Of a stretch of DNA of 55,997 bases, positions 7,079-23,127 are shown one piece after another. Source of the DNA: a virus. Position numbers and translations under genes: made by a program. The notes under the pieces are model-generated. The model saw nothing but the letters and a program-made list of their open reading frames with translations. It made no database searches and was not told the DNA's origin. The stretch is taken from positions 1 through 55,997 of the IMG/VR virus record IMGVR_UViG_3300048597_000462, one strand, 5' to 3'. Numbering within the stretch: the first letter of the stretch is position 1; each line of letters starts with the position of its first letter.

Positions 7079-7098
7079 TTGTAGTCAGTCAAACGTGG
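7079..7098. promoter_or_regulatory. CACGTTTG operator, copy a
   Basis: On the plus strand TTGTAGTCAGTCAAACGTGG. It abuts the stop codon of the antirepressor gene and lies 54 bases upstream of the 312-aa gene. On the minus strand, TACAAT at its far end could serve as -10. One of five related sites. Confidence 0.6.
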
Positions 7099-7887
7099 CT
7101 AGGAGTCACCTAAAAGCAACTGGGTTCCTTGAGCCTTGCGGTACTGCGCCCAGAGTTCTTTCACTTTGCGAATATTTTCAGTGGGAATGTAGGGAGCCTG
7201 AACAGCACGGAAACCCTCACAGATTAGCCCTTGATGCTTGATTTGGGTTAACCATTGCTCAAACTGCTTCCCTGTTTTGAAGCCTAGTTCTCGCCCTAAA
7301 TCTGCGGTGGATTTACCCTCAAAGCTAACATTACGACCATTTTGGCAAATAACAGTCTCGGTAATCTTCTCTACCTTTTCCACTACGGCATCGGGGCGAC
7401 CTTGGATTAAAGCCAGAACTTGCGGGCCGTGCAAGTTCATGATGACTTCTGATTTCTCCATGATGAAACGCTGGTCAGACATCATGGAAGCATTCGCCGT
7501 GGCAATGTCAGCATGTAGCTTCATCAACTCAATTTGCTGAGTAAATTCCGGGTTAACCTTTTCGGCTAACTTCCACTTTTTCTCTACCTCGATAAAGTAT
7601 TGGCGGATAGCTTCCCCCTCCGAGGTCTCGGACATTAGCCCCAAGTGCTTTAAGCCATCGCAAGAAAGATGGATTTTTTCAACGGGGCGACCGCCGGTCT
7701 TTTCCACCGATTTGTGGTAAAGCTTGCCCTGAGAGGATTTCGGCAGTTTTCGCTTAGCCGAGTCCTTCCGGGAGTAACCTGTGATTTTCCATGCAACATC
7801 AAAATCCACTGGAAACTGATTGCCGTTTTGCTCGGCTTCATACCAGCTATCAATCAACGAAAAAATATCAGACGATACTATATCCAT
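7099..7887 (-). CDS. Phage antirepressor-like protein: MSV199-like N-domain plus KilA-C-like C-domain
   Basis: Residues about 5-105 carry the MSV199-type pattern FPVDFDVAWKITGYSRKD..AKR and IRQYFIEVEKKW, a domain found in phage and large-virus regulators with Bro-N/KilA modules. The C-terminal 95 residues (from GRPDAVVEKVEKI to QGTQLLLG) are nearly the same as the C-terminus of the Rha protein at 23191-23985. The N-domain instead matches the protein at 8710-9414. Antirepressors bind and neutralise phage repressors. GAGG nine bases upstream supports the ATG at 7887. An operator copy is just upstream. Confidence 0.8.
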   Translation of the reverse strand: MDIVSSDIFSLIDSWYEAEQNGNQFPVDFDVAWKITGYSRKDSAKRKLPKSSQGKLYHKSVEKTGGRPVEKIHLSCDGLKHLGLMSETSEGEAIRQYFIEVEKKWKLAEKVNPEFTQQIELMKLHADIATANASMMSDQRFIMEKSEVIMNLHGPQVLALIQGRPDAVVEKVEKITETVICQNGRNVSFEGKSTADLGRELGFKTGKQFEQWLTQIKHQGLICEGFRAVQAPYIPTENIRKVKELWAQYRKAQGTQLLLGDS

Positions 7888-7919
7888 AGACTGTTACCTC
7901 ATGGGGGTAATGGTTAAAG

Positions 7920-7943
7920 TCCTCCGGCTGACACCGGGGGCAC
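7920..7943 (-). other. Hairpin in antirepressor 5' leader
   Basis: CCTCCGG (7921) pairs with the CCGGGGG region (ending about 7940), placing a stable hairpin between the predicted promoter and the antirepressor start. No T-run follows on the minus strand. Possible translational control element. Confidence 0.3.
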
Positions 7944-7949
7944 ACTTTA

Positions 7950-7970
7950 TTGTAACTCACACAAACGTAG
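7950..7970. promoter_or_regulatory. CACGTTTG operator, copy b
   Basis: Plus strand TTGTAACTCACACAAACGTAG. On the minus strand this reads CTACGTTTG...TTACAATAA, where TACAAT is a likely -10 for the antirepressor gene at 7887. It is the most diverged copy. Confidence 0.5.
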
Positions 7971-8016
7971 CGGTTTTTCGCATCACACCACCGCCGCCCA
8001 CCCTATAGATCAACGA

Positions 8017-8178
8017 CTAATCGCCAGGGTTGGACTCTTTTTCCTTGTCCACCATTTCCGCCAGCAACAGTTCGATGAGATTGCTAAGACTACGACGTTT
8101 GCGCTGGGCTATTCGCTCAGCCTCTTTTTTTAGATCCTCGGGGATGTATGCTCCCACTCTTGCTTTTGCAGTTGCCAT
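8017..8178 (-). CDS. Ribbon-helix-helix repressor, 53 aa
   Basis: MATAKARVGAYIPEDLKKEA then AERIAQRKRRSLSNLIELLL is a clear RHH/CopG-type DNA-binding fold: a beta strand followed by two helices. I chose the ATG at 8178, with GGGAG five bases upstream, over a longer upstream extension. It is divergent from the leader-controlled small gene at 8416. A 14-bp dyad (8202-8215) lies just downstream of its own TATAAT, suggesting autoregulation. Probably a lysis-lysogeny or module-specific repressor. Confidence 0.8.
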   Translation of the reverse strand: MATAKARVGAYIPEDLKKEAERIAQRKRRSLSNLIELLLAEMVDKEKESNPGD

Positions 8179-8201
8179 AAAAACTCCCAGTGCTTGTGCC
8201 A

Positions 8202-8215
8202 AGGTATCAATACCT
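8202..8215. promoter_or_regulatory. Putative RHH operator (AGGTAT-CA-ATACCT)
   Basis: A perfect inverted repeat with 6-bp arms and a 2-bp spacer. It lies a few bases after a minus-strand extended -10, TGTTATAAT (TATAAT at 8227-8222), so a bound repressor would cover the start of its own transcript. Confidence 0.5.
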
Positions 8216-8256
8216 AGCGACATTATAACAGACTCCGCCTTAATCCAGTGATAGAC

Positions 8257-8286
8257 TTGACAAAAGTAACACTACCTCGCTACATT
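8257..8286 (+). promoter_or_regulatory. Sigma70-type promoter of the leader/85-aa gene
   Basis: TTGACA (8257-8262), an 18-bp spacer and TACATT (8281-8286). This is a near-consensus housekeeping promoter, unlike the GTACACAA class, which suggests transcription by host RNA polymerase from entry or during lysogeny. Confidence 0.65.
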
Positions 8287-8292
8287 AGAAGC

Positions 8293-8415
8293 ATAGAGAA
8301 ACGGACAACCCGCCGCAAGCTCAGAGTTAACCAAAGGGTAGATACAACAAAGCGATAGCCGCCCGTGGAAAGAACGCTATCGCCCTGTAAATCCATTTAG
8401 AAAAGGATTACGACC
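8293..8415 (+). promoter_or_regulatory. Conserved structured leader RNA, copy L1
   Basis: About 120 bases between the promoter and the 85-aa gene. It shares blocks with the leader at 49085-49198: GCAAGC, AGTTAACCAAAG, AAAGCGA, ATCGCC, TGTAAA and AAAGG. A stem GCGATAGC/GCTATCGC is visible near 8362-8388. The conservation is higher than one expects for unselected leader DNA between such diverged genes. I could not assign it to a known riboswitch. Confidence 0.55.
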
Positions 8416-8673
8416 ATGTTAAGTCCGATTGATCATTACCAGCAAGTAGAAATGACCGTAGCCGAAGCTGACTCGCTTCAGGCTGACCAGTTCGAGGCTC
8501 AGGAAATCAGCAAAGGGCAGTGGGATGCCATCACCGCTCCCTTCATGCAGAATCTTCTAGCTAGCGGCAAGTCTAGCGCCTACTGGGAAGGTTTCATCTC
8601 CGAGTTGGCAGACCGAGCGGGAGTGAGCTTTGCGCTTTTCCCCCAACCCCATCTAACTGCCGACGAATTTTAA
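8416..8673 (+). CDS. Leader-controlled small protein, 85 aa (paralog of 49199-49450)
   Basis: Not recognised, but a clear paralog of the 83-aa protein at 49199-49450: both begin MLS-IDHY/DYYQ, share EAD-QAD, KGQ-AI-AP, an FISELADRAGVSFALFPQP-like C-terminal block and end in EF. The conserved Trp and aromatic pattern suggests a compact fold that may bind a protein partner. It is the first gene after the leader RNA, an AAAGG ribosome site lies upstream, and a terminator-like hairpin separates it from the MSV199 protein. Role in the repressor/antirepressor switch is inferred from position. Confidence 0.7.
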   Translation: MLSPIDHYQQVEMTVAEADSLQADQFEAQEISKGQWDAITAPFMQNLLASGKSSAYWEGFISELADRAGVSFALFPQPHLTADEF

Positions 8674-8685
8674 TCAACCATTACC

Positions 8686-8706
8686 GGGGGCTTAGTGCCC
8701 CTTTTT
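8686..8706 (+). terminator. Terminator or attenuator between 85-aa gene and MSV199 gene
   Basis: GGGGC (8687-8691) pairs with GCCCC (8697-8701), followed by TTTTT. The next gene starts only four bases later, so read-through must occur for it to be expressed from this promoter. GGGGG inside the hairpin could serve as ribosome site for a GTG start at 8695. Confidence 0.6.
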
Positions 8707-8709
8707 CTA

Positions 8710-9414
8710 ATGATTTCAATCAATGAGCAAGAGCAAGTACGGGCATGGTTAGAAGCTGAACGGAAAGGCGATCGCTTCCCCGTCGACTTTGACATCGCCT
8801 GGGTGATGGCTGGTTATGCAATGAAGCACCATGCAAAACGCCGGTTAACTAATCAGTCATCCTATCTGGTTTTGAATGAGGATTACAAAATAGACAAAGG
8901 GGCTGTACTTATCACCCAATCGGGTGAATCGACGATTTCTGGTCGTTCTAGCGACCGGATAGTAATGACTTGTGATGCTTTTAAACATTTCTGCCTCATG
9001 GCGCAAACTGCCAAGGGGCGTGATGTCCGGCAATATTTCATCGAAGCAGAAAAAACATTGCTAACATCCATCCCCACCTGTCAATTGTTAAACGAGGAAC
9101 TGCAAAATCTCCGCCAACAGTTGGCAAGGGCACAGCGACCGGCTGAGTCTGGCAAGTTTCAACTGCACTGCGACAAACTCCCCACCACCTACCGCTATAC
9201 CCTGGCGGTTCAGGTAAGCGAGACTCAATATATTGAGTTAATGCACTACACCCTGCCAGAGTGGATTGCCCAGGAAACTGACTATGAGAAATTCAAAGTC
9301 CTCCACAAGGCGGCGATAGAACCCATCACGGAGTTGATGCGGATGCTAAACCGGATGAGCCGGGAATTTACCCCGATAGATAAACCGGCGATCACCCGAT
9401 ACGCTAACCGATAA
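8710..9414 (+). CDS. MSV199-like antirepressor-type protein, 234 aa
   Basis: The N-terminal half (RAWLEAERKGDRFPVDFDIA, then AGYAMKHHAKRRL, CDAFKHFCLMAQTAKG and DVRQYFIEAEKTLL) is homologous to the N-domain of the protein at 7099-7887. The C-terminal half is different and has no wHTH I can identify; it may form a helical oligomerisation domain. Start is ATG 8710, or GTG 8695 with GGGGG upstream inside the hairpin. Located after the leader-controlled 85-aa gene, so expression may depend on attenuation. A terminator follows. Confidence 0.7.
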   Translation: MISINEQEQVRAWLEAERKGDRFPVDFDIAWVMAGYAMKHHAKRRLTNQSSYLVLNEDYKIDKGAVLITQSGESTISGRSSDRIVMTCDAFKHFCLMAQTAKGRDVRQYFIEAEKTLLTSIPTCQLLNEELQNLRQQLARAQRPAESGKFQLHCDKLPTTYRYTLAVQVSETQYIELMHYTLPEWIAQETDYEKFKVLHKAAIEPITELMRMLNRMSREFTPIDKPAITRYANR

Positions 9415-9421
9415 ATTACTG

Positions 9422-9447
9422 ACCCCTGGCATTAGCTGGGGTTTTTT
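9422..9447. terminator. Intrinsic terminator
   Basis: ACCCC pairs with GGGGT, followed by a run of T. It lies between the convergent genes ending at 9414 and 9446. Confidence 0.65.
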
Positions 9448-9769
9448 AGCGAATAGGCAACATATTAAACTGAGGGCAAGTAAGGTTGATATAGCGAAAC
9501 ATCCCGTCAAGATAAGACCTAGGGGCGGGATTGTCCGGGTTTTGGCGCAAAACATAAGCAAGAAATCCCACCCATGATTGCTCTTCATATTGCATAAAAC
9601 TACTTACTGCCATTTCATTAACCTCTGATTGGGTTCGACTCAATGGCAATGCCCGACAGCAATGAAAACCCATCATTCCACCCAATCTAAATGTCAGATT
9701 AGGATCTTTAGCCGCTTCTGGGTACGGAATAGTTTGAGCCATCAATATTCCCGCCAACAATATATCCAC
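9446..9769 (-). CDS. Hypothetical protein, 107 aa
   Basis: Not recognised. The N-terminus MDILLAGILMAQTIPYPEA could be a short signal or anchor; the rest has two His/Cys-containing blocks (GFHCCRALPLSR) and aromatic C-terminus. Second gene of a two-gene minus-strand unit. Confidence 0.5.
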   Translation of the reverse strand: MDILLAGILMAQTIPYPEAAKDPNLTFRLGGMMGFHCCRALPLSRTQSEVNEMAVSSFMQYEEQSWVGFLAYVLRQNPDNPAPRSYLDGMFRYINLTCPQFNMLPIR

Positions 9770-9772
9770 ATT

Positions 9773-10030
9773 TCAATCCTCTAATGTGTACGTTTCAATG
9801 GTAACCCGTCCCATAACCTTCAGGGTGGATTGTTGTTCATCGTTCAGCAGATTAAAAGCATCGGTCAGATCTTTAGCCTGATACTCCCGCTTCACCGCCA
9901 GCACTTCTGAAACATCCCCATTATCAATCGCATCCAATAGCCGCAGAGCAATATCAGTCACCACAGCAGTATTGGTGGTCGGTGGCTCAGCAAAGTCAAA
10001 TTTCCCCATCAGCATCCCGGTCAAACTCAT
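9773..10030 (-). CDS. Hypothetical protein, 85 aa
   Basis: Not recognised; acidic and helical (ALRLLDAIDNGDVSEVLAVK). It is first in the unit with the 107-aa gene, three bases apart. A palindrome copy (P2) lies 72 bases upstream, in the divergent gap shared with the ERF gene. The ATG at 10030 has a weak GGTGG site. Confidence 0.5.
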   Translation of the reverse strand: MSLTGMLMGKFDFAEPPTTNTAVVTDIALRLLDAIDNGDVSEVLAVKREYQAKDLTDAFNLLNDEQQSTLKVMGRVTIETYTLED

Positions 10031-10101
10031 CCACCGCTAGATTAATCCTCAACCCTTACCAGATAAGCCCTTTACTATCATCAATAGTTCATCCACACCT
10101 A

Positions 10102-10139
10102 TTAAGCGATGCTATAGAAGACTTTATAGGACCACTTAA
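10102..10139. repeat. 38-nt intergenic palindrome, copy P2
   Basis: Begins TTAAGCGATGCTATAGAAG and ends TATAGGACCACTTAA. It lies between the divergent 85-aa and ERF genes, 61 bp before the start element at 10200. Confidence 0.85.
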
Positions 10140-10183
10140 TAGGTAATTATGCTTAATCTTTGTGTGTACAATGCAACGGAGTT

Positions 10184-10207
10184 ATGTTATGATGTGAGGG
10201 TACACAA
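10184..10207 (+). promoter_or_regulatory. Start-element promoter (GTACACAA), copy S2
   Basis: TGT-TATGAT, six bases, GTACACAA at 10200-10207. GGGAGATA follows as ribosome site for the ERF gene. The upstream block GTTATGTTAT recurs at the minus-strand promoter near 47060. Confidence 0.65.
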
Positions 10208-10222
10208 TACGGGAGATACCCC

Positions 10223-10909
10223 ATGGAGAATTTGATTAAAGCATTGGTTAAGGCTCGGTCTGAGTTTGACCGGGTGACGAAGGATAGCAATAACCCTTTC
10301 TTTAAAAGTAAATATGCTGACCTAGCGTCAGTAGTAGCGGCAATCACCCCAGCACTATCCGCCAATGGTCTGGTGGTGACTCAGCCCATTGTGACGATTG
10401 ACCCTACGCTATCCCCGATACTACCCAAGCCGGTAAAAACGGAAAAGTCGGAATCTCCAGTGGATGTCCCTATGACGACCATAGGGGTTTTAACCCAGGT
10501 ATGGCATGAGTCTGGAGAAAAGCTGGAAAGCGTCTTCCCTGTTCCCCCCATGGAAGACATCCAAAAGGTGGGATCTGCGATCACGTATATCCGCCGGTAT
10601 GCCCTGTCATCTTTGTTGGGGGTTGCCCCGGAGGATGATGATGGCAACGCCGCCAGTCAAGGTAACAATGGCAATGGTAACGGTGCGGTAAAAAAGCCTG
10701 CTAACGGCACCATCAGCCGTGAAGAATGGCTCAAAAAGCAGGGCAAGACTGCCCCGCCGCCCAAGCCAGAAGTTCCCAAACCATTGGCTCCCAAGGACGT
10801 TCAGGCATTAAAGGAAGATTTGGGAGTTGCCCCGGAGTTACCCAAAGTGGAAGCACCCCCCAAGGCTACAGTTCCGGCAACTGTGCCTGATGATGAGCCT
10901 CCCTTTTAA
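10223..10909 (+). CDS. erf: ERF-family single-strand annealing protein
   Basis: The N-terminal 130 residues carry the ERF pattern: LIKALVKARSEF, NNPFFKSKYADLASVVAAI, PALSANGLVV, GVLTQVWHESGE and the block AITYIRRYALSSLLGVAPED. ERF proteins bind ssDNA ends and anneal complementary strands in phage recombination. The C-terminal 90 residues are a Pro/Lys/Ala-rich linker ending in DDEPPF, like the acidic tails of ssDNA-binding proteins that recruit partners. The ATG at 10223 has GGGAG eight bases upstream. Followed closely by the helicase gene. Confidence 0.9.
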   Translation: MENLIKALVKARSEFDRVTKDSNNPFFKSKYADLASVVAAITPALSANGLVVTQPIVTIDPTLSPILPKPVKTEKSESPVDVPMTTIGVLTQVWHESGEKLESVFPVPPMEDIQKVGSAITYIRRYALSSLLGVAPEDDDGNAASQGNNGNGNGAVKKPANGTISREEWLKKQGKTAPPPKPEVPKPLAPKDVQALKEDLGVAPELPKVEAPPKATVPATVPDDEPPF

Positions 10910-10919
10910 ACGTTCCACC

Positions 10920-10929
10920 GTACACAAAC
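10920..10929 (+). promoter_or_regulatory. Start element GTACACAA, copy S3
   Basis: GTACACAAAC between the ERF and helicase genes, 56 bases before the helicase ATG. The upstream -10 is poor (TTTTAAAC with a longer gap), so this may be a weaker promoter or only the operator part of the signal. Confidence 0.4.
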
Positions 10930-10984
10930 AATCCTGGGTTATCCCGAAAGGCAAGCCGCATAGCCCAGGTTAGGAGAATAAACT

Positions 10985-13543
10985 ATGCTTCAATTGCGAG
11001 ACTATCAAGAAAAGGTCAAGCGTGACCTTTACACTCTAGTCAGGGAAGGTTTTAGCAAAGTATTGGTTGTGGCCAGCACCGGGTCGGGCAAGTGTCTGGG
11101 GAAAGGAACCCCGGTCATGCTGTATGACGGCACAATCAAGCCAGTAGAAGAAATCAAGGTAGGCGATCAACTAATGGGCGACGATTCTACCCCCCGGACA
11201 GTATTAAGCCTGGCAAGGGGGCAGGAAGAATTGTTTAAGGTAACGCCGGTCAAGGGGGATTCATGGGTATGCAATAAATCGCATATTCTATCCCTCGTCT
11301 GTAATGCTAAAAAAGGAGCCTTGCAACACGGTCAAATTTACGATATTCCTGTTGGGGATTACCTCGAACTAGGGCGAACCCACAAACACGTTCTAAAGCA
11401 ATATCGAGTGGGTGTTACTGAGTTTGGCAACAATAGCGGCGATCTCCCTGTAGATCCATGGCTGTTGGGATTGTTCATCGGGGATGGGCATAAAACAGGC
11501 AATTCATTTCATCTCAATGACACCACAAAGATTGATGTTGCGGTTAAAGCTTCATCGGTATTAGTCGATTCAGGGTTTAGCCCTTCATCAAGCAGGGAAG
11601 GGAGTGCCCATGGAGTCCGACTTGGTATTCGCATGAATACCGCAACAGAAAGGTTTATCTATTTTGTGAGGAGGGCATGGGACGGTGAAATACTTAACGC
11701 CCACAACATTTACATCCCTCACAAGTACAAGACATCATCTATTGAAAACAGACTTGCATTATTGGCTGGGCTAATAGACTCTGATGGAAGCTTTGATGGA
11801 ATGTGCTTTTCATTTTCTACCGTCAGCGAGTCACTGGCGGATGATGTGTGCTTTGTTGCCCGTTCACTGGGACTTGCCGCCTATAAAGCATTTCGGGCAA
11901 CAAAATGTGATGGCAAGTCCTTCCCATCATTTCGGGTTAGCATTAGTGGCGATTTGTCCGGTCTGCCTTGCGCCCGGTGGCAAACGTCTGAGCGTAAGCA
12001 GATAAAAAGTGTTTTACGCACAGGCTTTTCTATTGAGTCGCTGGGTGTTGGCGATTACTATGGCTTTACTATTGACGGCAACCACCGATTTTTACTAGGG
12101 GACTTTACCGTTACCCATAACACCGAAACAGCCGTATCAATAGTGGAGGATGCCCTATCCAAGGGGAGGCGGGTTGCCTTTGTTGTCCACCGGGATAACC
12201 TAGTCAGGCAGACCTTAGCCCGGTTCCAGAAATATGGTCTAAACCCATCGGCGGTAAAAGCAGGATTTAAACCGGACTATGACAATCCCTGTCAGGTGGT
12301 CAGTTTACAGACAGTGGTACGGCGCAAAAATGCCCTGCATACCCTGGAGGACATCGCCATCTATGACGAAGCCCACATCACCGCTTGGTCAACGCTGGGC
12401 AAAGATTTAATCACCAATAACGCCCACCGGCTCACCATCGGGTTGACTGCCACACCTTGGCGGTTGTCCAAAAGGGAGGAAATGGGCGATTTATTCTCCG
12501 AGGTGGTGTGCGCTCCATTGCCCGCTCAGTTAATTGAGAAAGGGTTTTTGGTGCCGCCCCGGTACTTTGGGCTGGATGGCATTGATACCAGCGAGGTTAG
12601 AACCACCGCCGGAGATTTTAACCTGGGAGACTTGGGCGTTTTAACCAATGACCCCGAGGTGGTACAAACCGCTGTCAGAGAATGGCTACGTTTGGCTGAG
12701 AACAGAAAGACCATTGTATTCTGCGTGAACGTTGCCCACTCTCAGGCAATCGCCCGTGAGTTTAACCGTCAGGGCATCCCCGCCGCCCACGTTGACGGCA
12801 CCATGGACTCGGTTAAAGAGTGTCAGCCACTATATGACAAGCTAGCCAAAGGTAAAATCAAGGTCATTAGTTCTTGTGAGAAACTCTCGGAGGGCTTTGA
12901 CGTGCCGGATATTGGCTGTGCCATGCTGTGCCGTCCTACTAAGTCCAGGGCAAAATACGTTCAACAGATTGGTCGTGCCCTACGGATATTCCCCGGCAAA
13001 AAAGATGCGATAATCCTCGACCAAGCTGGCAACGTTCCCCGCCATGGCTTTGTGGAGGATTTAACCAAAGCTGATTTCAGGTTGTATCTTTCCACCGATG
13101 CCCCAAAGGGGGAGCCGCCAGTTAAAGAGTGCGAGTGTTGCCATGCCCTGGTCAGAATATCCGCCAGGGAATGCCCAGAGTGTGGCAACCCCTTTCCCAT
13201 TAAGGAGCGGGAAAAGGCAGTGGGGCAATTGACTGAGTTGCGGCAACCTATACTGGTTGAATCAGAGCTACCCTATCGCCATCAGCAGTACCGGCAATGG
13301 CGTTGGGAAGCGTACAAAAAGGGTATTGCACCGGGCTATGCCATGGCAAAGTACAGGGAAATCTATGATGATTGGCCACCCAACAACCTATCCCTGGGGG
13401 CAGTGTTTAAGGGCAAAAATGATGACAAAACCCAAAAGCACTTTCTAAACTACCTGGAAAGAATTGCCATCAAGAAAAGCTGGGATAAAAAGAAAATCAC
13501 CCAAGAATTTACTAGGGAATTTGGCTTCCCCCCGGCAATATAA
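10985..13543 (+). CDS. SF2 DEAD/DEAH-box helicase interrupted by an intein
   Basis: The precursor is 852 aa. The mature helicase would be 509 aa: Q-motif-like LRDYQEKVKRDL, Walker A STGSGK|T, DEAH box IYDEAHIT (about residue 458 of the precursor), LTATPWR, and motif VI QQIGRALRIFPGK, so a ResIII/UvsW-like phage helicase able to remodel DNA branches. A zinc finger, CECCHAL...CPECGNPF, follows near the C-terminus. A 343-aa intein sits exactly between Lys and Thr of Walker A. The helicase is inactive until splicing. It forms an operon with erf. RBS GGAG upstream of ATG 10985. Confidence 0.95.
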   Translation: MLQLRDYQEKVKRDLYTLVREGFSKVLVVASTGSGKCLGKGTPVMLYDGTIKPVEEIKVGDQLMGDDSTPRTVLSLARGQEELFKVTPVKGDSWVCNKSHILSLVCNAKKGALQHGQIYDIPVGDYLELGRTHKHVLKQYRVGVTEFGNNSGDLPVDPWLLGLFIGDGHKTGNSFHLNDTTKIDVAVKASSVLVDSGFSPSSSREGSAHGVRLGIRMNTATERFIYFVRRAWDGEILNAHNIYIPHKYKTSSIENRLALLAGLIDSDGSFDGMCFSFSTVSESLADDVCFVARSLGLAAYKAFRATKCDGKSFPSFRVSISGDLSGLPCARWQTSERKQIKSVLRTGFSIESLGVGDYYGFTIDGNHRFLLGDFTVTHNTETAVSIVEDALSKGRRVAFVVHRDNLVRQTLARFQKYGLNPSAVKAGFKPDYDNPCQVVSLQTVVRRKNALHTLEDIAIYDEAHITAWSTLGKDLITNNAHRLTIGLTATPWRLSKREEMGDLFSEVVCAPLPAQLIEKGFLVPPRYFGLDGIDTSEVRTTAGDFNLGDLGVLTNDPEVVQTAVREWLRLAENRKTIVFCVNVAHSQAIAREFNRQGIPAAHVDGTMDSVKECQPLYDKLAKGKIKVISSCEKLSEGFDVPDIGCAMLCRPTKSRAKYVQQIGRALRIFPGKKDAIILDQAGNVPRHGFVEDLTKADFRLYLSTDAPKGEPPVKECECCHALVRISARECPECGNPFPIKEREKAVGQLTELRQPILVESELPYRHQQYRQWRWEAYKKGIAPGYAMAKYREIYDDWPPNNLSLGAVFKGKNDDKTQKHFLNYLERIAIKKSWDKKKITQEFTREFGFPPAI
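11093..12121 (+). other. Intein with LAGLIDADG homing endonuclease
   Basis: Residues 37-379 of the helicase precursor. Block A starts CLGKGTPVMLYDGTIKPVEE with Cys1; a block B-type His occurs in CNKSHIL; the two endonuclease motifs are WLLGLFIGDGH and LLAGLIDSDGSF; block G ends FTVTHN, with the terminal His-Asn, and Thr is the +1 residue. All splicing residues are present, so it should self-splice, and the endonuclease looks intact, so the element may still home into inteinless Walker A sites. Confidence 0.93.
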
Positions 13544-13564
13544 ACCAACACTAGAGGTAAAACA

Positions 13565-16094: not shown

Positions 16095-16099
16095 AATTT

Positions 16100-16570: not shown

Positions 16571-16592
16571 AAGCCCGCTATGGGGACGGGCT
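16571..16592 (-). terminator. Minus-strand terminator
   Basis: AGCCCG pairs with CGGGCT around a 9-base loop; on the minus strand it is followed by TTTATTATT. It ends the P63C/MerR-like transcript. Confidence 0.6.
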
Positions 16593-16617
16593 AGGGGGCT
16601 AATCCTTGTTTGCCGGA

Positions 16618-16776
16618 TTAAAACGCTAAGTGATTATCGTCTTCCCATTCAGCCATCATTTGAAGAATAACTTCCCATTCCGAGTCGCATGGGCCATATA
16701 AATAACCACCCACGGCAATACAATAACTTTCATTTTCGCTAATTAGTCTTGGAGGGTTGCAGATTAATTTTGGCAT
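16618..16776 (-). CDS. Small acidic protein, 52 aa
   Basis: MPKLICNPPRLISENESYCI and a C-terminus ending EWEDDNHLAF. It overlaps the end of the MerR-like gene by 13 bases, and GAGGAC lies upstream of its ATG within that gene. No family recognised. Confidence 0.5.
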   Translation of the reverse strand: MPKLICNPPRLISENESYCIAVGGYLYGPCDSEWEVILQMMAEWEDDNHLAF

Positions 16777-17114
16777 AATTTGTTGTCCTCAATGGTAAGC
16801 TCAATCAAAGTGCCTTTTATTCTCTTTTGAAAGTCAAGAATTTGTTTGCTATTCCCATCTGCTCTTAACTCGTGCAATAGATCGTCTATTGATTTTATCT
16901 GTTCGATTACGACTTTTATAGTCTGCAAAGATAGCTTTTCTCTCAGCCGTTGGATAATTTTTAATTGAATAACTTGCTCAACACTGTATATAACAATTGG
17001 TCGTTTTGGGTTACCTCGTTTTTCTGGAACCACCAATCCCGTGCTGTCCAGATAGCTAAGTTTTCCTGCTTTGATACCTGTCATGGTTATGACTTCTTGG
17101 CGGGTAAAAGACAT
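16764..17114 (-). CDS. MerR-like HTH regulator, 116 aa
   Basis: MSFTRQEVITMTGIKAGKL, SYLDSTGLVVPEKRG and VYSVEQVIQLKIIQRLREKL follow the MerR pattern: HTH helix pair, wing, then a helix with a Q-LKIIQRLRE motif. The C-terminal part is a helical dimerisation region. ATG 17114 has CGGAGA eight bases upstream. It lies in the P63C transcription unit. Confidence 0.75.
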   Translation of the reverse strand: MSFTRQEVITMTGIKAGKLSYLDSTGLVVPEKRGNPKRPIVIYSVEQVIQLKIIQRLREKLSLQTIKVVIEQIKSIDDLLHELRADGNSKQILDFQKRIKGTLIELTIEDNKLCQN

Positions 17115-17134
17115 GATATTTCTCCGTTTGTTAT

Positions 17135-17551
17135 TTAACTTTTCCAATAATCATCCAAAGTAGTCCAATCTTTCTCTTGGATTTCCGAAGGATCAATCCC
17201 AACCTCTCGCCATTGTTGCTGGTACTCTTTGATGTCTTTTTCTTTTAGCCCCCAATGGTCAGTCATTCCGTTGGGGGTCGTGCCAGTGACACTCATTAAA
17301 TAGGCGACATCAAACATCAAGTCTTCACTTGCGAGACAGGTTACATAGGCACTATTAGCGGTTAACTCTGGATTTTTCCAGTCGATAATCAGCAACTCTA
17401 TTGGCTTCATTTTTAGTGCCAATTCAACCGCCGATCCGACTAATGGATGGGTATGGTCGAAAGATTTTGACTCAAGCTTATTCAGTTCTTTAATTGACTT
17501 GATATATTTTCTGACGATGGGCTTTTTTAGAATTTGTTCAACGGTAGTCAT
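17135..17551 (-). CDS. Hypothetical protein, 138 aa
   Basis: Not recognised. Mostly helical; Trp/Glu-rich C-terminus (EYQQQWREVGIDPSEIQEKD). It lies downstream of P63C with an operator copy (17588-17609) immediately before it, so it may be transcribed separately as well as with P63C. Its stop is 20 bases from the MerR-like ATG. Confidence 0.55.
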   Translation of the reverse strand: MTTVEQILKKPIVRKYIKSIKELNKLESKSFDHTHPLVGSAVELALKMKPIELLIIDWKNPELTANSAYVTCLASEDLMFDVAYLMSVTGTTPNGMTDHWGLKEKDIKEYQQQWREVGIDPSEIQEKDWTTLDDYWKS

Positions 17552-17587
17552 AATGTTGTAGTGGTAAAGCCCCAGACTAGCCGGAGC

Positions 17588-17609
17588 GTTTGTGGTTAAT
17601 CAAACGTGG
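17588..17609. promoter_or_regulatory. CACGTTTG operator, copy c
   Basis: GTTTG (17588-17592) and CAAAC (17601-17605) form an inverted repeat followed by GTGG. It abuts the P63C stop codon, exactly as copy a abuts the stop of the antirepressor gene, and lies 37 bases upstream of the 138-aa gene. Confidence 0.7.
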
Positions 17610-18377
17610 TTATTTGAGCTTGCCAGAAAATAGGCTTAATTGATATTTCCGGGTTTTACTCTGCTCTAGGAAAGCGACCACTTCACTAAGCGACCCGGCG
17701 CAGGTCATTAAAGTTATAACCTTTTTCAGTTGCTCCCCCAGTAATTCAATACCCTGCTCACTTAGATATTGATGGAGCTTTTTATTGGGGTCGGTTGCAG
17801 ACTGCCATGCCTTGATTTCCTCATAAACCCCTTTAGGCATATAGTCATAAACCATTTCCTTGGTGAGCCGTGCCCATAGCAGGGGACGTTTATGCCCAAT
17901 GGGTTGCAATCCGGTCAACCGGGATAGTTGGTCATAAAATTCAACGCTGAACCGGGGTTGCCAATCCGTGGGCACTGGCAAGCACATAATCTCGACAATC
18001 TCCCGCTCTGTTAACCGACGGGGAGGCTCCCATCCTAGAGTGGACTGGATAATGGTTCGCAGACCAACAGCTCCCAAAGCATCGTCGGTATCCTGGGCAA
18101 CCTCTTTCCCCTGGCGAGAGTAGTATTTAATTATGGCTGAAGCCAGCACATCGGGAATATGGTCTGCACTATCAAAGCTAAGCCCAGCAAAGGGTTTAAG
18201 GTTTTTGGGAGTGTTTTGGCCCGCACCCTCTATCAGTTTTAAAAGCTTGCGGATAGAACTCTCATGTACTCCACTTAGTCGGGCAGTGCCACGGCGACTA
18301 ACAAAGCCATGACCTTTTTCATCTACTGAAAATTCCTTGGCAATACTTTCGGGTAATTCAAAACTTACAATACTCAT
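17610..18377 (-). CDS. P63C-domain protein, 255 aa
   Basis: The C-terminal half matches the P63C domain: FSVEFYDQLSRLTGLQP, then KRPLLWARLTKEMVYDYMPK, KLHQYLSEQGIELLGEQLKK and a final MTCAGSLSEVVAFLE. This domain of unknown biochemical function occurs in phage regulatory proteins, often joined to KilA/Rha-type N-domains. The N-terminus (SIVSFELPESIAKEF) is similar in its first residues to the Rha protein. AGGAAGG is upstream of ATG 18377. An operator and TATAAT lie upstream, sharing a leader block with the Rha gene. Confidence 0.75.
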   Translation of the reverse strand: MSIVSFELPESIAKEFSVDEKGHGFVSRRGTARLSGVHESSIRKLLKLIEGAGQNTPKNLKPFAGLSFDSADHIPDVLASAIIKYYSRQGKEVAQDTDDALGAVGLRTIIQSTLGWEPPRRLTEREIVEIMCLPVPTDWQPRFSVEFYDQLSRLTGLQPIGHKRPLLWARLTKEMVYDYMPKGVYEEIKAWQSATDPNKKLHQYLSEQGIELLGEQLKKVITLMTCAGSLSEVVAFLEQSKTRKYQLSLFSGKLK

Positions 18378-18442
18378 CGTGAGCCTTCCTGTCTTAGGTT
18401 TACTGCCGTTGGGGACTCCCATCCCGTGAACGGCTTTCCCAT

Positions 18443-18476
18443 ATTATAACCTTCTGTTTGTAGCCACTCAAACGTG
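18443..18476 (-). promoter_or_regulatory. P63C promoter with CACGTTTG operator, copy d
   Basis: Operator GTTTGTAGCCACTCAAACGTG (plus strand; 18456-18476) split by one base over 20 is given here as GTTTG...CAAACGTG. On the minus strand it ends seven bases before TATAAT (18448-18443). The leader downstream includes GGAAAGCCGTTCACGG, almost the same as in the Rha leader. Confidence 0.7.
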
Positions 18477-18576
18477 TTAAACGCCACACCCGCCCCGACT
18501 TTTTCGGATTAAGTCGTAAAAGTGGACTAACGCATTGCCATGGTGTTATCCAACCCCAACTAAGTATGAATACTCA

Positions 18577-18614
18577 TTAAGCGGTGCTATAAAGTCTTCT
18601 ATAGAGGGACTTAA
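18577..18614. repeat. 38-nt intergenic palindrome, copy P3
   Basis: Starts TTAAGCGGTGCTATAAAG and ends TATAGAGGGACTTAA. It lies 77 bp before nrdA in the 314-bp divergent region shared with P63C. Confidence 0.85.
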
Positions 18615-18691
18615 CAGGGTAAGTAGTTACTACTGATGGTGGTAAAAGCCTTTGGTGGATTACTATACAGAGTCCTGCCATTGCCATTCCT

Positions 18692-20941
18692 ATGCAATCC
18701 AAATTGTCCGTTACGTCGAGTCATCAAGCGCAAGTAATCCGTCGGGACGGATCTTCAACACCGCTAAATATTGGCAAAATTCGGGCAGTGGTGGACTGGG
18801 CTTGTCTTGGGTTGGAAGTAAACTCCATCGCCCTAGAAGCGGGGCTAACCACTCGGTTAAGGGAAGGGATTAGCACTAGAGAGATTCAAGATAATCTGAT
18901 TAGCTGTGCTTTGGAAATGTGCAGTCCCAACGAACCAGATTGGCGTTATGTTGCTGGTCGCTTACACATTTGGAGTCTGTGGAAAGATACCTTGGTGCGT
19001 CGGGGTTATCAGTATGGTCAATATCTACGCACGGTGCAAACGAAGGTCACCAACGGGGAATATGACTCCCGCATCTTGACCTACAGCGAAGCGGAATTGC
19101 AGGAAGCGGGCTGTTGGATTAACTCGGACTGGGACACAGACTATGACTATGCCGGGGCGGTGTTGCTTACCAGCCGTTATCTTTTGCCCAATGAGTTGCC
19201 CCAGGAAGCATTACTCACCTGTGCTTTGTTGCTAGCTTCGGTAGAAGATCCCGATCGCCGTTTGCAATGGGCCAGAAGATTTTATGAGGCGATCGCTGCT
19301 CGACGCATTTCTTTAGCTACCCCTATTCTGGCTAATTTGCGAGTCCCCGGTGGTTCCCTGACCTCCTGTTTTATCGTGGCCATGGAGGATAACCTGGAAA
19401 GTATTTTTGGGGAAATCACCAATGCCGCTAGAATCTCTAAAAATGGTGGTGGGGTTGGAGTTAACGTTTCCCGCATCCGAGCCACCGGTAGTTGGGTAAT
19501 GGGTAAGCCCAACGCTTCCGGGGGAGTTATTCCCTGGACAAAACTGCTCAACGATACGGCGATCGCTGTTAATCAGGGGGGGCGCAGAGCCGGAGCCGTA
19601 ACCGTAGGGCTGGATGTGTGGCATTTAGATGTACCAGAATTTCTGGAAATGCAGGCGGAAAACGGTGACCAACGGCGTAAAGCCTATGATATTTTTCCCC
19701 AGTTAATCTTGCCCGATGAATTTATGCGGCGGGTAATCAATAAAGAAGATTGGACGTTGGTGGACCCCTACGAAGTTAGGGAAAAAATGGGCATTGAGTT
19801 AGCCGAGCTCTGGGGCGAACAGTTTGAAACTGCCTATCGGGAAATTGAATCAAACCTGGACACCACCATTACCCTCTACAAGCGTATTAATGCTAGGGAA
19901 CTGTTTAAGCAGATAATGCGTACCCAGGTGGAAACAGGGATGCCCTATCTTTCCTTTAAGGACACTATTAATAAAGCCAATCCTAATAAACATTTGGGTT
20001 ATATTCCTGGCACTAATCTTTGCTGTGAAAGTTTTAGTAACGTTACCCCCGGCCAGGATGCCCATTGCTGTAACCTAGTTAGCCTCAACCTTGCCAATCT
20101 AGACTTGCAAGACATTGCTGGGGTCAGTCAGATTGCTGTGCGGATGCTGGATAACACCATTGAATTGACTGCGCCTCCCTTTGCCGATGCCAAAAGCCAT
20201 AACAACAAATACCGCACCATCGGGGTGGGAGCCATGGGGTTAGCAGACTGGCTGGCTAAACGTCGTCTAAATTATGACGAGTTGGCAGACATTAACCGCC
20301 TATTCGAGGAAATTGGCTATTGGTGTACCCAATCCTCCATGGAATTAGCCAAGGAACGGGGAGCTTACCCCGCTTTTCCCGGTAGTGACTGGCAAAAAGG
20401 TTTATTAATTGGCTCCAAACCTGTCAGTTGGTTTCAAACTAATGCGGCGAAACCCGAACGGTGGGAAAAACTTGCCAACGATATTCAAACCCATGGCATT
20501 CGCAACTCCCACATCACGGCGATCGCTCCCAACACTTCCTCTTCCCTAGTCCAAGGTTGCACCGCCAGCATTTTGCCGGTCTATAGCCGCTTCTTTTACG
20601 ATAAATGGGCCAAGGGCACTGTCCCCATTGCACCGCCCTTCATTGGCAATTGTTTCTGGTTCTACCCGGAGAATAAAACCATGGACCAGCGCAAAGTAGT
20701 CAAAGCCGTGGCTGCCATCCAACAATGGACAGATACGGGCATCTCCATGGAGTTATTATTTAACCTCAATGCAGGTATTTATTTCCCAGAAGAACCGGAA
20801 AGAAGCCTCAATGCTAAGGACATTTTTGACACCTTGGTCATGGCATGGGAGTCCGGTTGTAAGGCTATTTACTATATCCGCACTGTGCAAAAGGATGACT
20901 TCAAGGATTCCTCTAATGGCTGTGTTGCCTGTGCTAATTAG
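18692..20941 (+). CDS. nrdA: Ribonucleoside-diphosphate reductase, class I large (catalytic) subunit
   Basis: NrdA reduces ribonucleoside diphosphates. An ATP-cone-type N-terminus (QVIRRDGSSTPLNIGKIRAV) is followed by the barrel: the first redox Cys in GGSLTSCF, catalytic N-L-C-C-E in TNLCCES, second Cys in DAHCCNLVSLN, a radical-path Tyr pair in KAIYYIRTVQ, and a C-terminal redox pair CVAC. All essential residues are present; 749 aa is normal for the family. Three HIP1 sites lie within it, a density higher than the rest of the window, hinting at recent host origin. No ribosome site is seen before the ATG. It ends convergent with the gene at 20938. Confidence 0.96.
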   Translation: MQSKLSVTSSHQAQVIRRDGSSTPLNIGKIRAVVDWACLGLEVNSIALEAGLTTRLREGISTREIQDNLISCALEMCSPNEPDWRYVAGRLHIWSLWKDTLVRRGYQYGQYLRTVQTKVTNGEYDSRILTYSEAELQEAGCWINSDWDTDYDYAGAVLLTSRYLLPNELPQEALLTCALLLASVEDPDRRLQWARRFYEAIAARRISLATPILANLRVPGGSLTSCFIVAMEDNLESIFGEITNAARISKNGGGVGVNVSRIRATGSWVMGKPNASGGVIPWTKLLNDTAIAVNQGGRRAGAVTVGLDVWHLDVPEFLEMQAENGDQRRKAYDIFPQLILPDEFMRRVINKEDWTLVDPYEVREKMGIELAELWGEQFETAYREIESNLDTTITLYKRINARELFKQIMRTQVETGMPYLSFKDTINKANPNKHLGYIPGTNLCCESFSNVTPGQDAHCCNLVSLNLANLDLQDIAGVSQIAVRMLDNTIELTAPPFADAKSHNNKYRTIGVGAMGLADWLAKRRLNYDELADINRLFEEIGYWCTQSSMELAKERGAYPAFPGSDWQKGLLIGSKPVSWFQTNAAKPERWEKLANDIQTHGIRNSHITAIAPNTSSSLVQGCTASILPVYSRFFYDKWAKGTVPIAPPFIGNCFWFYPENKTMDQRKVVKAVAAIQQWTDTGISMELLFNLNAGIYFPEEPERSLNAKDIFDTLVMAWESGCKAIYYIRTVQKDDFKDSSNGCVACAN

Positions 20942-21231
20942 TCGAGCGCTTCCATACTTTCACCATAAATTGTCCTTGCCACCCGTAAAAGCACCAAATA
21001 ACCCATCAAATCCCGTTCAACGTCTTCAGTATCATCGGATTGCCCTGATACCAACCGGGATAACTTGTCGTCAATCCTGACCTTGATTTGCTCAATAGCA
21101 TCAGCCTTGGAAAAAATCCGCTGGGGGCATAAAGCACTATTTCCATACTTGCGATTTTTATCAAGCAACATGAACTTTAGGTCGTCGCATTCCTGGGCAA
21201 TGAACATTGCCGCATCGGTGTTACTGATCAT
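20938..21231 (-). CDS. Nucleotide-modification-associated-domain-like protein, 97 aa
   Basis: LLDKNRKYGNSALCPQRIFS, RIDDKLSRLV and ERDLMGYLVLLRVAR resemble the DUF1599/Nmad1 pattern (KN-x-KYG, RI-DK-RL, D-GYL-LL), a fold linked to nucleotide or DNA modification. Similarity is from pattern only. AGGAAAAA lies upstream of ATG 21231. It is the last gene of the thyX-dcd operon and overlaps the nrdA end by four bases. Confidence 0.6.
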   Translation of the reverse strand: MISNTDAAMFIAQECDDLKFMLLDKNRKYGNSALCPQRIFSKADAIEQIKVRIDDKLSRLVSGQSDDTEDVERDLMGYLVLLRVARTIYGESMEALD

Positions 21232-21245
21232 AGATTTTTCCTTTG

Positions 21246-21476
21246 TCACTGATTTAACGTGGAGATGATTAACTTTGACTCCGGTGTTGGCTGCAAATTC
21301 ACCAACCAAGGTGACAATTCAACGTCAATGCCCAAGGATTCAATTTCGTCATACGTTTCCATCAAAATGTCCACCCAGTGATACCATCGCAAATTCATTT
21401 GCGTCCCCCTGCTTTCTTCTAAGCGTCGGTATAGGCGATGGCATCGGCGGAATAGGTGAAATACTTGCTTGGTCAT
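21246..21476 (-). CDS. Hypothetical protein, 76 aa
   Basis: Not recognised; helical and Arg/Trp-rich in the N-terminal half (FHLFRRCHRLYRRLEESR). Its ATG overlaps the upstream stop by four bases (ATGA). Part of the thyX-dcd operon. Confidence 0.55.
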   Translation of the reverse strand: MTKQVFHLFRRCHRLYRRLEESRGTQMNLRWYHWVDILMETYDEIESLGIDVELSPWLVNLQPTPESKLIISTLNQ

Positions 21477-21640
21477 CCTTTTGACTCCTGCACTTGGCGA
21501 TCACCGGGTTGCCAATAAATGCAGAGGTTCCACCACCAAAGCAGAATCCGATAAAATGGGTGCCCGAATTTTTCAGACTGGCTTAGAAACCCTATCCCCC
21601 ATAAACCGGAATATTTAGACTCAATAAGCTTAAATTTCAT
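21473..21640 (-). CDS. Small protein, 55 aa
   Basis: MKFKLIESKYSGLWGIGFLS then a Trp-rich segment (ILLWWWNLCIYW) that might insert in or lie on the membrane. Start overlaps the dcd stop by one base (TAATG) and the end overlaps the next ATG by four bases, strong evidence of a real gene in the operon despite its size. Confidence 0.6.
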   Translation of the reverse strand: MKFKLIESKYSGLWGIGFLSQSEKFGHPFYRILLWWWNLCIYWQPGDRQVQESKG

Positions 21641-22233
21641 TAGCCTTTACTCTCCATGACTGTTTTATCTCCGTTATAGCGGCCGGTCTGGGCGTAGGTT
21701 TTACGGGGAACTCCCAATGTAAGGCTGAATATTAACTGCCCCATTCGTAGCCCAGGGTAAAACGGCAGAGGCTCAGCATCCATATTAATAATCTCCATGG
21801 TTAGTTTTGAACCGTGCCATTGGGGATCACAAAAACCCGCTTCCATATGTTCGTACCACTCTCGTCCCCGGCTTGACTTTAACCGGAATTGGGCGCAGAG
21901 AAATTCCGGCAGGTTAAAGGTTTCCAGGCTGGACACCAATAGGCGATCGCCAGGGGGTAGCCAGTAAGGGTTCTCAACATCAAAACTACTGAGGTCAATG
22001 GGGGCATAGCCGCAGACCTTGCCGCCATCAATAACATTGCGGACGGTGCGAAGTTTTGCCGTGGTGCCAATCCGAATATCGAGACTGGCCGGATTAATTA
22101 GCCTAGGGTCATACTGCTCTACCATTGGCAAGGGATTCCCAATCCAGTGCCCTGTAAATAGATACCCTAGCCTGATATACCAAGGCACTTCGCCCCGGCA
22201 TAACTGGTCAATTTGATGGTCAACTAAAATCAT
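21640..22233 (-). CDS. dcd: dCTP deaminase / dUTPase-superfamily protein
   Basis: This family deaminates dCTP to dUTP or hydrolyses dUTP, supplying dUMP for thymidylate synthase. The sequence shows SLDIRIGTTAKLRTV (motif 1), FRLKSSRGREWYEHMEAGFC with DPQWHG (catalytic region), TMEIINMDAEPLPFYPG and LRMGQLIF (trimer motifs). The Arg and Glu of the active centre are in the expected places. 197 aa fits. ATG 22233 has GGAG seven bases upstream; TTG 22245 is an alternative. Directly follows thyX in the operon. Confidence 0.85.
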   Translation of the reverse strand: MILVDHQIDQLCRGEVPWYIRLGYLFTGHWIGNPLPMVEQYDPRLINPASLDIRIGTTAKLRTVRNVIDGGKVCGYAPIDLSSFDVENPYWLPPGDRLLVSSLETFNLPEFLCAQFRLKSSRGREWYEHMEAGFCDPQWHGSKLTMEIINMDAEPLPFYPGLRMGQLIFSLTLGVPRKTYAQTGRYNGDKTVMESKG

Positions 22234-22246
22234 TTTATGCTCCAAG

Positions 22247-23056
22247 CTAAGGGGCTAATTTTGCTTTTTTCCAACGGTTTTTCAGATACCATTCAGCAAC
22301 TTCAGGGCACCATATCTTAAACTGCCCCATCAACAATTCGCAGAACCATTGGCACTCCAATTGAGCGTCTTCCTTTGCTCTTAAATCGAGTAGGTGCATT
22401 AGAGAGCGAACATTGACAGACATCACAAAATGTTGCCGGTAATCAAATGGTAGAGTTCCTCTACAGTGTTCTTCACTAATACCTTTACTGCGGTCTAGAT
22501 AATATCGCCAAGCCGCATTGTAAATGGTCTCGTAATGCTTGGTTTGGTCTTCTTCGGTGTAGCTATATTTCTCACCTTTTCGGTTGGTATATTCCCCTAC
22601 CGGACGAACATAGAAGTTCTCAAGAATCAATCCCCTGACCGCATCTCCTAACGGCTGATTATGGTAATTAGGCAACTCGTTTATTTCTTCGACCATATTG
22701 ACAATCCTTTGCCCGGTATAGCGCATCGACTGCACATCAAAGGTTATACCGACCCGGTGGGTTCTGATCTGTTGGATAAGCGAATGGGGGAAGTTGCCGC
22801 AGGCTAGGGTAATCTGTGGGGCTTCAAAGCATCCATAATGCCCCCTTCCTCCAGCCAATAAATGCTTAACAATCCGCCTCCCGGCGACTTCCTCAACGTT
22901 AGGATTATCTTTAAACAATTTGAACGCCATGCCGTCTTTCCATTGCAGGTCATCATAAACAAAGTTTTCGCAATAATCCTGGTGCATGGCGGCATAAATT
23001 ACCTGTTGAGGGTTAGGTGTTGCCGCTATAGTTTCAATCCTGAATAAACTGTCCAT
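22247..23056 (-). CDS. thyX: Flavin-dependent thymidylate synthase
   Basis: ThyX makes dTMP from dUMP using FAD and methylene-THF. The diagnostic block is QIRTHRVGITFDVQSMRYTG, an R-x-H-R-(x7)-S-x-R form of the ThyX motif; NVRSLMHLLDLRAKEDAQLE carries the second substrate-binding region. 269 aa is within the family's range. ATG 23056 is chosen because a start element GTACACA lies just upstream; a longer start (Met 20 bases earlier) would put the promoter inside the gene. First gene of the dNTP operon. Confidence 0.93.
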   Translation of the reverse strand: MDSLFRIETIAATPNPQQVIYAAMHQDYCENFVYDDLQWKDGMAFKLFKDNPNVEEVAGRRIVKHLLAGGRGHYGCFEAPQITLACGNFPHSLIQQIRTHRVGITFDVQSMRYTGQRIVNMVEEINELPNYHNQPLGDAVRGLILENFYVRPVGEYTNRKGEKYSYTEEDQTKHYETIYNAAWRYYLDRSKGISEEHCRGTLPFDYRQHFVMSVNVRSLMHLLDLRAKEDAQLECQWFCELLMGQFKIWCPEVAEWYLKNRWKKAKLAP

Positions 23057-23068
23057 CTTTGCACTTAA

Positions 23069-23087
23069 TGTGTACAAAGTATTTTAA
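23069..23087 (-). promoter_or_regulatory. Start-element promoter, copy S4 (thyX)
   Basis: Minus strand TAAAAT, five bases, GTACACA (23075-23069). Ribosome site is weak (AAG). Divergent from Rha. Confidence 0.5.
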
Positions 23088-23095
23088 GGTTGCTT

Positions 23096-23127
23096 GTTTG
23101 TGGCTGAACAAACGTGGCGGGTATAAT
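23096..23127 (+). promoter_or_regulatory. Rha promoter with CACGTTTG operator, copy e
   Basis: GTTTG (23096-23100) and CAAAC (23108-23112) with GTGG, then CGGG and TATAAT (23122-23127). The operator would occupy the -35 to -15 region. The leader carries GGAAAGCCCTTCACGG, matching the P63C leader. Confidence 0.7.

What the first reader, a model, noticed from the sequence alone, without database searches (positions are those of the whole stretch)
7079..23127. Five CACGTTTG-type operators define an antirepressor regulon
Sites at 7079-7098, 7950-7970, 17588-17609, 18456-18476 and 23096-23117 share CAAACGTG or CACGTTTG with a GTTTG/CAAAC arm eight bases away in the best copies. They precede the 312-aa gene, the MSV199-KilAC antirepressor, the 138-aa gene, P63C and Rha. 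Copies a and c abut the stop codon of the upstream regulator in exactly the same way. Near P63C and Rha the operator is next to TATAAT and is followed by a shared leader, GGAAAGCC-TTCACGG.
Basis: seen in the sequence. Interest (0 to 1): 0.78.

Follow-up and report, generated by a model that had tools for sequence, protein, structure and literature searches.

The report
Shared switch on cyanophage antirepressor genes
A virus of the cyanobacterium Synechocystis carries the same short control sequence and the same hairpin-shaped RNA leader in front of five scattered genes, at least three of them "antirepressor"-type regulators that can wake sleeping viruses, and other cyanobacterial viruses and a plasmid use the same leader on the same kinds of genes.

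Summary
Four CACGTTTG-N7-ACAA sites and one weaker copy (TACGTTTG) lie between genes at 7077, 7949, 17588, 18456 and 23096. The exact pattern occurs nowhere else in the window, with about 0 expected by chance. It is essentially absent from 390 cyanobacterial genomes (1 coding hit) and from IMG/VR (5 isolated hits). An operator regulon is plausible but unproven, and it is not the whole story. Every site is followed by a hairpin with compensatory base changes, then an unpaired A(C/G)TAACCA-type stretch and a start codon 17-33 nt later. The operator is private to this phage; the leader is not. In IMG/VR, 34 of 34 leader hits precede Rha, MSV199 or P63C-N-type genes of Microcystis phages, which have their own private promoter element there. 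The leader also heads an MSV199 gene in a cyanobacterial genome and a BstA/P63C-N gene on Synechocystis plasmid pSYSA. Best reading: a phage-specific repressor site plus a widely shared RNA leader form a two-layer expression cassette for KilA-N-type regulators, behind which N-terminal domains are swapped. The binding protein and the leader's function are inferred. No Rfam family matches.

The parts
7077..7097 (-). site a, CACGTTTGACTGACTACAATC, between the ant262 stop and the 312-aa gene
7056..7076 (-). hairpin a (ACCTCGTC-TAAAT-GACGGGGT), followed by a 30-nt tail to the ATG at 7025
7949..7969 (-). site b (weak), TACGTTTGTGTGAGTTACAAT; TACAAT is a possible -10
7921..7940 (-). hairpin b (CCCCCGG-TGTCAG-CCGGAGG), followed by a 33-nt tail to the ATG at 7887
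17588..17608 (-). site c, CACGTTTGATTAACCACAAAC, between the P63C stop and the 138-aa gene
17569..17587 (-). hairpin c (GCTCCGG-CTAGT-CTGGGGC), followed by a 17-nt tail to the ATG at 17551
18456..18476 (-). site d, CACGTTTGAGTGGCTACAAAC, upstream of P63C; TATAAT at 18443-18448
18405..18434 (-). hairpin d (GCCGTT...AACGGC with inner stem), followed by a 27-nt tail to the ATG at about 18377
23096..23116 (-). site e, CACGTTTGTTCAGCCACAAAC, between thyX and Rha; symmetric core; TATAAT at 23122-23127 on the + strand
23134..23163 (+). hairpin e (GCCCTT...AAGGGC with inner stem), followed by a 27-nt tail to the GTG at about 23191
7099..7887 (-). ant262: MSV199-like head and the Rha-type C-terminal domain; antirepressor PHROGs
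17610..18377 (-). P63C protein with a BstA/KilA-N-like N-terminal domain
23191..23985 (+). Rha-family regulator
6087..7025 (-). 312-aa protein of unknown function behind site a
17135..17551 (-). 138-aa protein of unknown function behind site c
8017..8179 (-). RHH (Arc/CopG-like) protein next to ant262; candidate repressor, untested

Best explanation
Each site is the upstream half of a compact expression cassette with two layers. Layer 1 (inferred from pattern and position): an operator, CACGTTTG-N6-YACAAW with a GTTTG-N8-CAAAC core, over or beside the promoter. A phage-encoded repressor binds it and keeps several scattered regulator genes (ant262, P63C, Rha and two unknown genes) silent in the lysogen, to be released together. 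Layer 2 (pairing shown comparatively, function inferred): a leader made of a GC-rich hairpin, at or near the RNA 5' end in the clearest copies, followed by an unstructured A(C/G)TAACCAC-type stretch and the start codon 17-33 nt later. It most likely shields the mRNA 5' end and keeps the ribosome landing site open, so that a short derepression yields a strong pulse of protein. The operator is specific to each phage lineage. The leader is common to KilA-N-type regulator genes of several cyanobacterial phages and a plasmid, and stays in place while the N-terminal domain behind it is exchanged.
For: Motif non-random and private; absent from S. salina, 1 coding hit in 390 genomes, 5 isolated hits in IMG/VR. 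The reversed orientation of e favours a symmetric operator over a promoter box. Model R1 scores the five leaders at 23-29 bits and nothing else above 13. Stem covariation: 53 of 54 pairs standard, permutation p about 1.5e-5 (also 62). 34 of 34 IMG/VR leader hits lie 21 nt before Rha, MSV199 or P63C-N-type genes. Leader also on an MSV199 gene in G124, on viral contig L223 and on the pSYSA BstA/P63C-N gene. In Microcystis phages G391 and G397 the element ATTTRAAW-N0-3-GGTAYAAT occurs exactly twice, at their two leader-bearing genes. Domain swap behind a fixed leader: L176 vs L181.
Against: No binding, TSS or expression data. Stems were picked because they pair, so the permutation p overstates the support. 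In a and c the motif is 0-1 nt from the hairpin and no good promoter fits between, so those hairpins may be intercistronic rather than 5'-terminal. The 312-aa and 138-aa genes are unidentified. Copy b is weak. No repressor identified; no CI/XRE-type gene among the proteins scanned. PaV-LD Rha has a different hairpin, and CL131 Rha and several Nostoc homologues lack the leader.
Confidence: 0.55

Rival explanations
1. The leader is the main regulatory element: an RNA structure read by a common trans factor (RNA-binding protein or small RNA) that co-ordinates translation of KilA-N-type genes; the CACGTTTG site is an ordinary promoter-proximal site.
For: Leader more widely conserved than the operator and confined to one gene class; start codon at a restricted distance. 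RNA control of antirepressors has precedent (P22 sar, P1 c4; own knowledge).
Against: Loop sequence varies and is even inverted among Microcystis phages, which disfavours loop recognition; no convincing antisense partner seen; the operator is independently non-random.
Confidence: 0.2
2. Shared leaders are recombination handles or relics of recent gene duplication; their conservation reflects module exchange between antirepressor genes rather than regulation.
For: The swap breakpoint lies 18 nt inside the gene behind a conserved leader; d/e and a/c are pairwise homologous into or up to the coding start; PCC 7338/7339 plasmids keep the leader but lost the head domain.
Against: Compensatory stem changes and long-range conservation between phages and plasmid argue for selection on structure; the operator is also present at e in reverse orientation.
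Confidence: 0.12
3. The motif is a promoter element (for example for the phage sigma-like protein at 47786-48661) rather than a repressor site.
For: Sites lie at promoters; a sigma-70 region 2 protein is encoded; b has TACAAT inside the motif and d has TTGAGT-N17-TATAAT starting in it (sequence).
Against: Orientation at e is reversed relative to Rha; distance to the hairpin varies from 0 to about 22 nt; d and e have host-type -10 boxes outside the motif.
Confidence: 0.08
4. The sites are a dispersed partition centromere, as in phage N15, bound by the RHH or ParB_N-like protein.
For: Scattered palindromic intergenic sites; ParB_N-like protein 5591-6079 and an RHH protein encoded.
Against: No ParA among scanned ORFs; an integrase is present; sites coincide with one gene class and a leader.
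Confidence: 0.03
5. The conserved stretch from leader to first codons is an aba-like DNA self-immunity element of BstA-type proteins.
For: P63C and pSYSA proteins share the BstA head; in BstA the aba element spans 29 bp upstream and 34 bp of coding (PMC8585504); leader and first codons are conserved between d and e.
Against: The same leader serves Rha and MSV199 genes; hairpin sequence varies while pairing is kept; no CCCGCC direct repeat.
Confidence: 0.02

Closest known systems
Gifsy/Fels antirepressor control in Salmonella (Lemire et al. 2011, PMC3121763)
   Same: Antirepressor genes outside the immunity region, held by a transcriptional repressor; antirepressors can act across prophages
   Different: There the controller is LexA or the Fels-1 repressor; here the site is phage-private, its binder is unknown, and a hairpin leader is added
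P22 immI region (arc/mnt-ant, sar RNA; own knowledge)
   Same: RHH (Arc-like) gene beside an antirepressor gene; operator at the antirepressor promoter; RNA layer on ant
   Different: Five dispersed sites; no sar-like antisense RNA seen; binding by the RHH protein untested
BstA-aba abortive infection (PMC8585504)
   Same: P63C and the pSYSA protein share the BstA KilA-N-like head; a conserved element spans the upstream region and first codons
   Different: aba is a 63-bp DNA element with CCCGCC repeats and cognate specificity; here a hairpin of variable sequence is shared by Rha and MSV199 genes too
5' hairpin leaders that stabilise mRNA (T7 gene 10, ompA from own knowledge; psbA2 5' hairpin in Synechocystis, PMC7283877)
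   Same: Short hairpin near the 5' end with a single-stranded ribosome region after it
   Different: Restricted to one regulatory gene class across mobile elements; A/C-rich spacer instead of AU-rich
Racr RNA anti-CRISPRs (PMC10651486)
   Same: Hairpin followed by ACTxA resembles a cyanobacterial CRISPR repeat end (hairpin-ACTGAAAC); R1 weakly hits the pSYSA repeat
   Different: Stem sequence not conserved, GAAAC end missing, always at a gene start; probably coincidence

Membership tests
Phage repressor operator set | Site over-represented and confined to promoter regions | tested here: met
   4 vs 0.0 expected; all five intergenic
Phage repressor operator set | Bound by an identified repressor | not testable with these tools
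   RHH, MerR-like and HTH_17 proteins are only candidates
Antirepressor regulon | Controlled genes are antirepressors | tested here: inconclusive
   3 of 5 are antirepressor/KilA-N type; the 312-aa and 138-aa genes are unknown
Antirepressor regulon | Relatives share an element at the same kinds of gene | tested here: met
   CACGTTTG itself is absent in relatives, but a different private element sits exactly at both genes in G391 and G397
Structured cis-acting RNA | Compensatory base changes in the stem | tested here: met
   caveat: stems were chosen because they pair
Structured cis-acting RNA | Transcribed as part of the mRNA leader | not tested
   no TSS data; -10 boxes 6-9 nt upstream of the hairpin in b, d and e (sequence)
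Known Rfam family | Match to a curated covariance model | tested here: not met
   no relevant match
[quoted passage not shown]
   P63C E=5e-5, pSYSA homologue E=1.9e-15
BstA (P63C gene) | BstA C-terminal region | tested here: not met
   C-terminus is P63C; the BstA match covers residues 39-120 only
P22 immI type | RHH repressor binds the antirepressor promoter | not testable with these tools
   gene order only
Partition centromere (N15 type) | ParA-ParB pair encoded | tested here: not met
   ParB_N-like protein only, no ParA among scanned ORFs; not every ORF was scanned

The most novel reading that the evidence does not exclude
The hairpin-A(C/G)TAACCAC leader is a new class of cis-acting RNA (or, by analogy with aba, DNA) element dedicated to KilA-N-type genes (Rha, MSV199, BstA/P63C-N) of cyanobacterial phages and plasmids, read by a common trans-acting factor, so that unrelated mobile elements in one cell can co-ordinate their induction.
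Probability: 0.2. Interest if true: 0.8.

Novelty: new variant of a known kind. Interest (0 to 1): 0.62.

Why it matters
To my knowledge lysogeny control is little understood in cyanophages. This gives a concrete, testable regulon in a phage of a Synechocystis-like host, together with a leader that also occurs on plasmid pSYSA of the model strain PCC 6803, where promoter, leader and protein can be tested directly. It also shows one way antirepressor genes diversify: promoter and leader stay fixed while the recognition domain is swapped.

Tried and rejected
Close relatives by DNA: none among phage or plasmid records. P63C, ant262 and capsid as probes in viral contigs: nothing. Rha alignment in genome contigs: nothing. 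Operator elsewhere: 5 viral hits and 1 genome hit, isolated, most in or over reading frames, none a recognisable promoter of a related gene. Rfam: nothing relevant. Leader as an intrinsic terminator: rejected, no U-run follows. Antisense RNA to the leader tails: overlapping 10-mers, 32 found against 15 in mononucleotide shuffles; none long or suggestively placed, so left open rather than excluded. Whole-genome scan with model R1 is shallow (only 150 candidates scored per genome). Structure of the 312-aa protein: mean pLDDT 49, not usable. MAFFT aligns the hairpins inconsistently (A5-A7), so pair counts were made on a hand alignment of stems. Pattern for the pSYSA-type tail in viral contigs: 9 hits, only L223 is such a leader; in 390 genomes the only exact hit is the MSV199 gene, four one-mismatch hits look like chance.
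Full report
WHAT THE WINDOW IS. The window is a 55,997-base virus record with integrase, Erf recombinase, RusA, dCTP deaminase, ThyX, two ribonucleotide reductases, an intein-bearing helicase, a sigma-70 region 2 protein and capsid and tail genes. Its class II ribonucleotide reductase is 96% identical in protein to that of Synechocystis salina and 86% in DNA, so the host is most likely Synechocystis. No close relative was found among phage or plasmid records.

THE SITES. CACGTTTG alone is poorly informative (5 seen, 1.5 expected). The longer form CACGTTTG-N7-ACAA is decisive: 4 hits, all intergenic, none expected. A weight matrix trained without each copy still ranks a, c, d and e 2nd to 5th among 111,954 positions; b ranks 41st and rests on its context. 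The core GTTTG-N8-CAAAC is perfect in c, d and e. The motif has no hit in S. salina, one coding hit in 390 cyanobacterial genomes and five isolated hits in IMG/VR. It is private to this phage as far as the data go.

THE GENES. Site b precedes ant262, a hybrid of an MSV199-like head and a C-terminal domain 57% identical to that of Rha (antirepressor PHROGs). Site d precedes P63C, whose head matches the KilA-N-like domain of BstA (domain described in PMC8585504). Site e precedes Rha and also faces thyX. Sites a and c precede a 312-aa and a 138-aa gene that match nothing, each directly behind an antirepressor-type gene.

THE LEADER. Behind each site lies a hairpin, then an unpaired stretch (a AGTTTCAACAC, b ACTTTAACC, c TTTACCAC, d AGTAAACC, e AGTAACCAC), then the start codon after 17-33 nt. 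d and e align at 79% from the site into the coding sequence, with the same architecture (6-bp outer stem, CAC bulge, inner stem) but changed pairs. a and c align likewise with changed pairs. Covariance model R1, built from a-e plus relatives, scores the five at 23-29 bits and the next window position at 13; the five were in the training set, so this shows uniqueness, not independent discovery.

RELATIVES. Rha genes of phages that are probably Microcystis phages (host inferred from an 88% match over 669 bases to the Ma-LMM01 tRNA region) lack CACGTTTG but have TACAAT..GCCCCCG-loop-CGGGGGACTAACCACATTACC. A DNA pattern for this leader finds 34 places in IMG/VR; all 34 lie 21 nt before the start of a Rha, an MSV199-type or a third-family gene (one third-family copy, L183, is frameshifted). 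The third family has a P63C-N-type head by profile comparison (E=2.6e-6) and the same PADLOC HTH model. Two phages carry both a Rha and a third-family copy (L173+L203; L183+L195), the same pairing as in the window. In both, ATTTRAAW-N0-3-GGTAYAAT occurs exactly twice, once at each gene. Many of the 34 contigs are near-identical, so they represent far fewer independent events than 34.

INDEPENDENT OCCURRENCES. The leader also precedes an MSV199 gene in a cyanobacterial genome (L140), a relative of it on a viral contig (L223) and the BstA/P63C-N gene of pSYSA, near cas1 and cas2 (L023). In Synechocystis PCC 7338 and 7339 plasmids promoter and leader are 92-94% conserved although the N-terminal domain is missing. 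Other homologues (CL131 Rha, Nostoc plasmid genes) lack the leader, so it is common, not universal.

DOMAIN SWAP. L176 (MSV199 head) and L181 (Rha head) are 92% identical upstream up to about 18 nt inside the gene (first aligned block), unrelated in the head, and 96.6% identical in the C-terminal part and beyond. The window carries the same two heads on the same C-terminal domain as two separate genes.

MECHANISM. Shown: non-random private sites at gene starts; a conserved pairing leader; restriction to one gene class in the relatives found. Inferred: a repressor binds the sites. The inverted orientation of e and the varying distance to the hairpin favour a symmetric operator over a promoter box. 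The RHH protein next to ant262 recalls Arc beside ant in P22 (own knowledge), but this is position only. For the leader, protection of the 5' end plus an open ribosome site is the simplest explanation; control by a trans factor cannot be excluded. Synechocystis RNase E cleaves leaders near a short 5' hairpin in psbA2 (PMC7283877, PMC10989914).

LIMITS. No expression, TSS or binding data. Stem pairing was scored on stems chosen by eye. In a and c no good promoter fits between site and hairpin. Two of the genes are unidentified. The leader resembles CRISPR repeat ends (hairpin-ACTGAAAC), probably by coincidence. The literature search covered open-access papers only; the searches made found no description of this leader or regulon.

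Noticed in passing
45334-45354: A perfect GTTTG-N8-CAAAC (TACGTTTGGCTGAACTCAAAC on the - strand) lies inside the 1116-aa gene 42698-46048; chance about 0.05 per window.
   Followed up: no
10985-13543: Helicase gene interrupted by an intein with a LAGLIDADG homing endonuclease.
   Followed up: no
871-1923 and 18692-20941: The phage carries both an RNR small chain and a Synechocystis-like class II RNR (96% identical to S. salina), probably taken from a host.
   Followed up: partly
L173, L176, L181, L195, L203: Probable Microcystis phages exchange Rha and MSV199 heads of one antirepressor gene behind a fixed leader; the hairpin loop occurs in both orientations (GGTACTAA / TTAGTACC).
   Followed up: yes
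L023:6007-7047 (pSYSA, NC_005230.1): A BstA-N/HTH gene near cas1-cas2 in Synechocystis PCC 6803 has the same leader; PCC 7338/7339 plasmids keep the leader but lost the N-terminal domain.
   Followed up: partly
L023:2336-2376: The leader model weakly hits a repeat that looks like the pSYSA CRISPR repeat (CCCCGTCAGGGGACTGAAAC, 17.9 bits), a possible repeat-mimic lead.
   Followed up: no
8200-8225: GGTATTGATACC inverted repeat in the leader of the RHH gene; may be that protein's own operator.
   Followed up: no
47786-48661: Phage protein with a sigma-70 region 2 match only.
   Followed up: no
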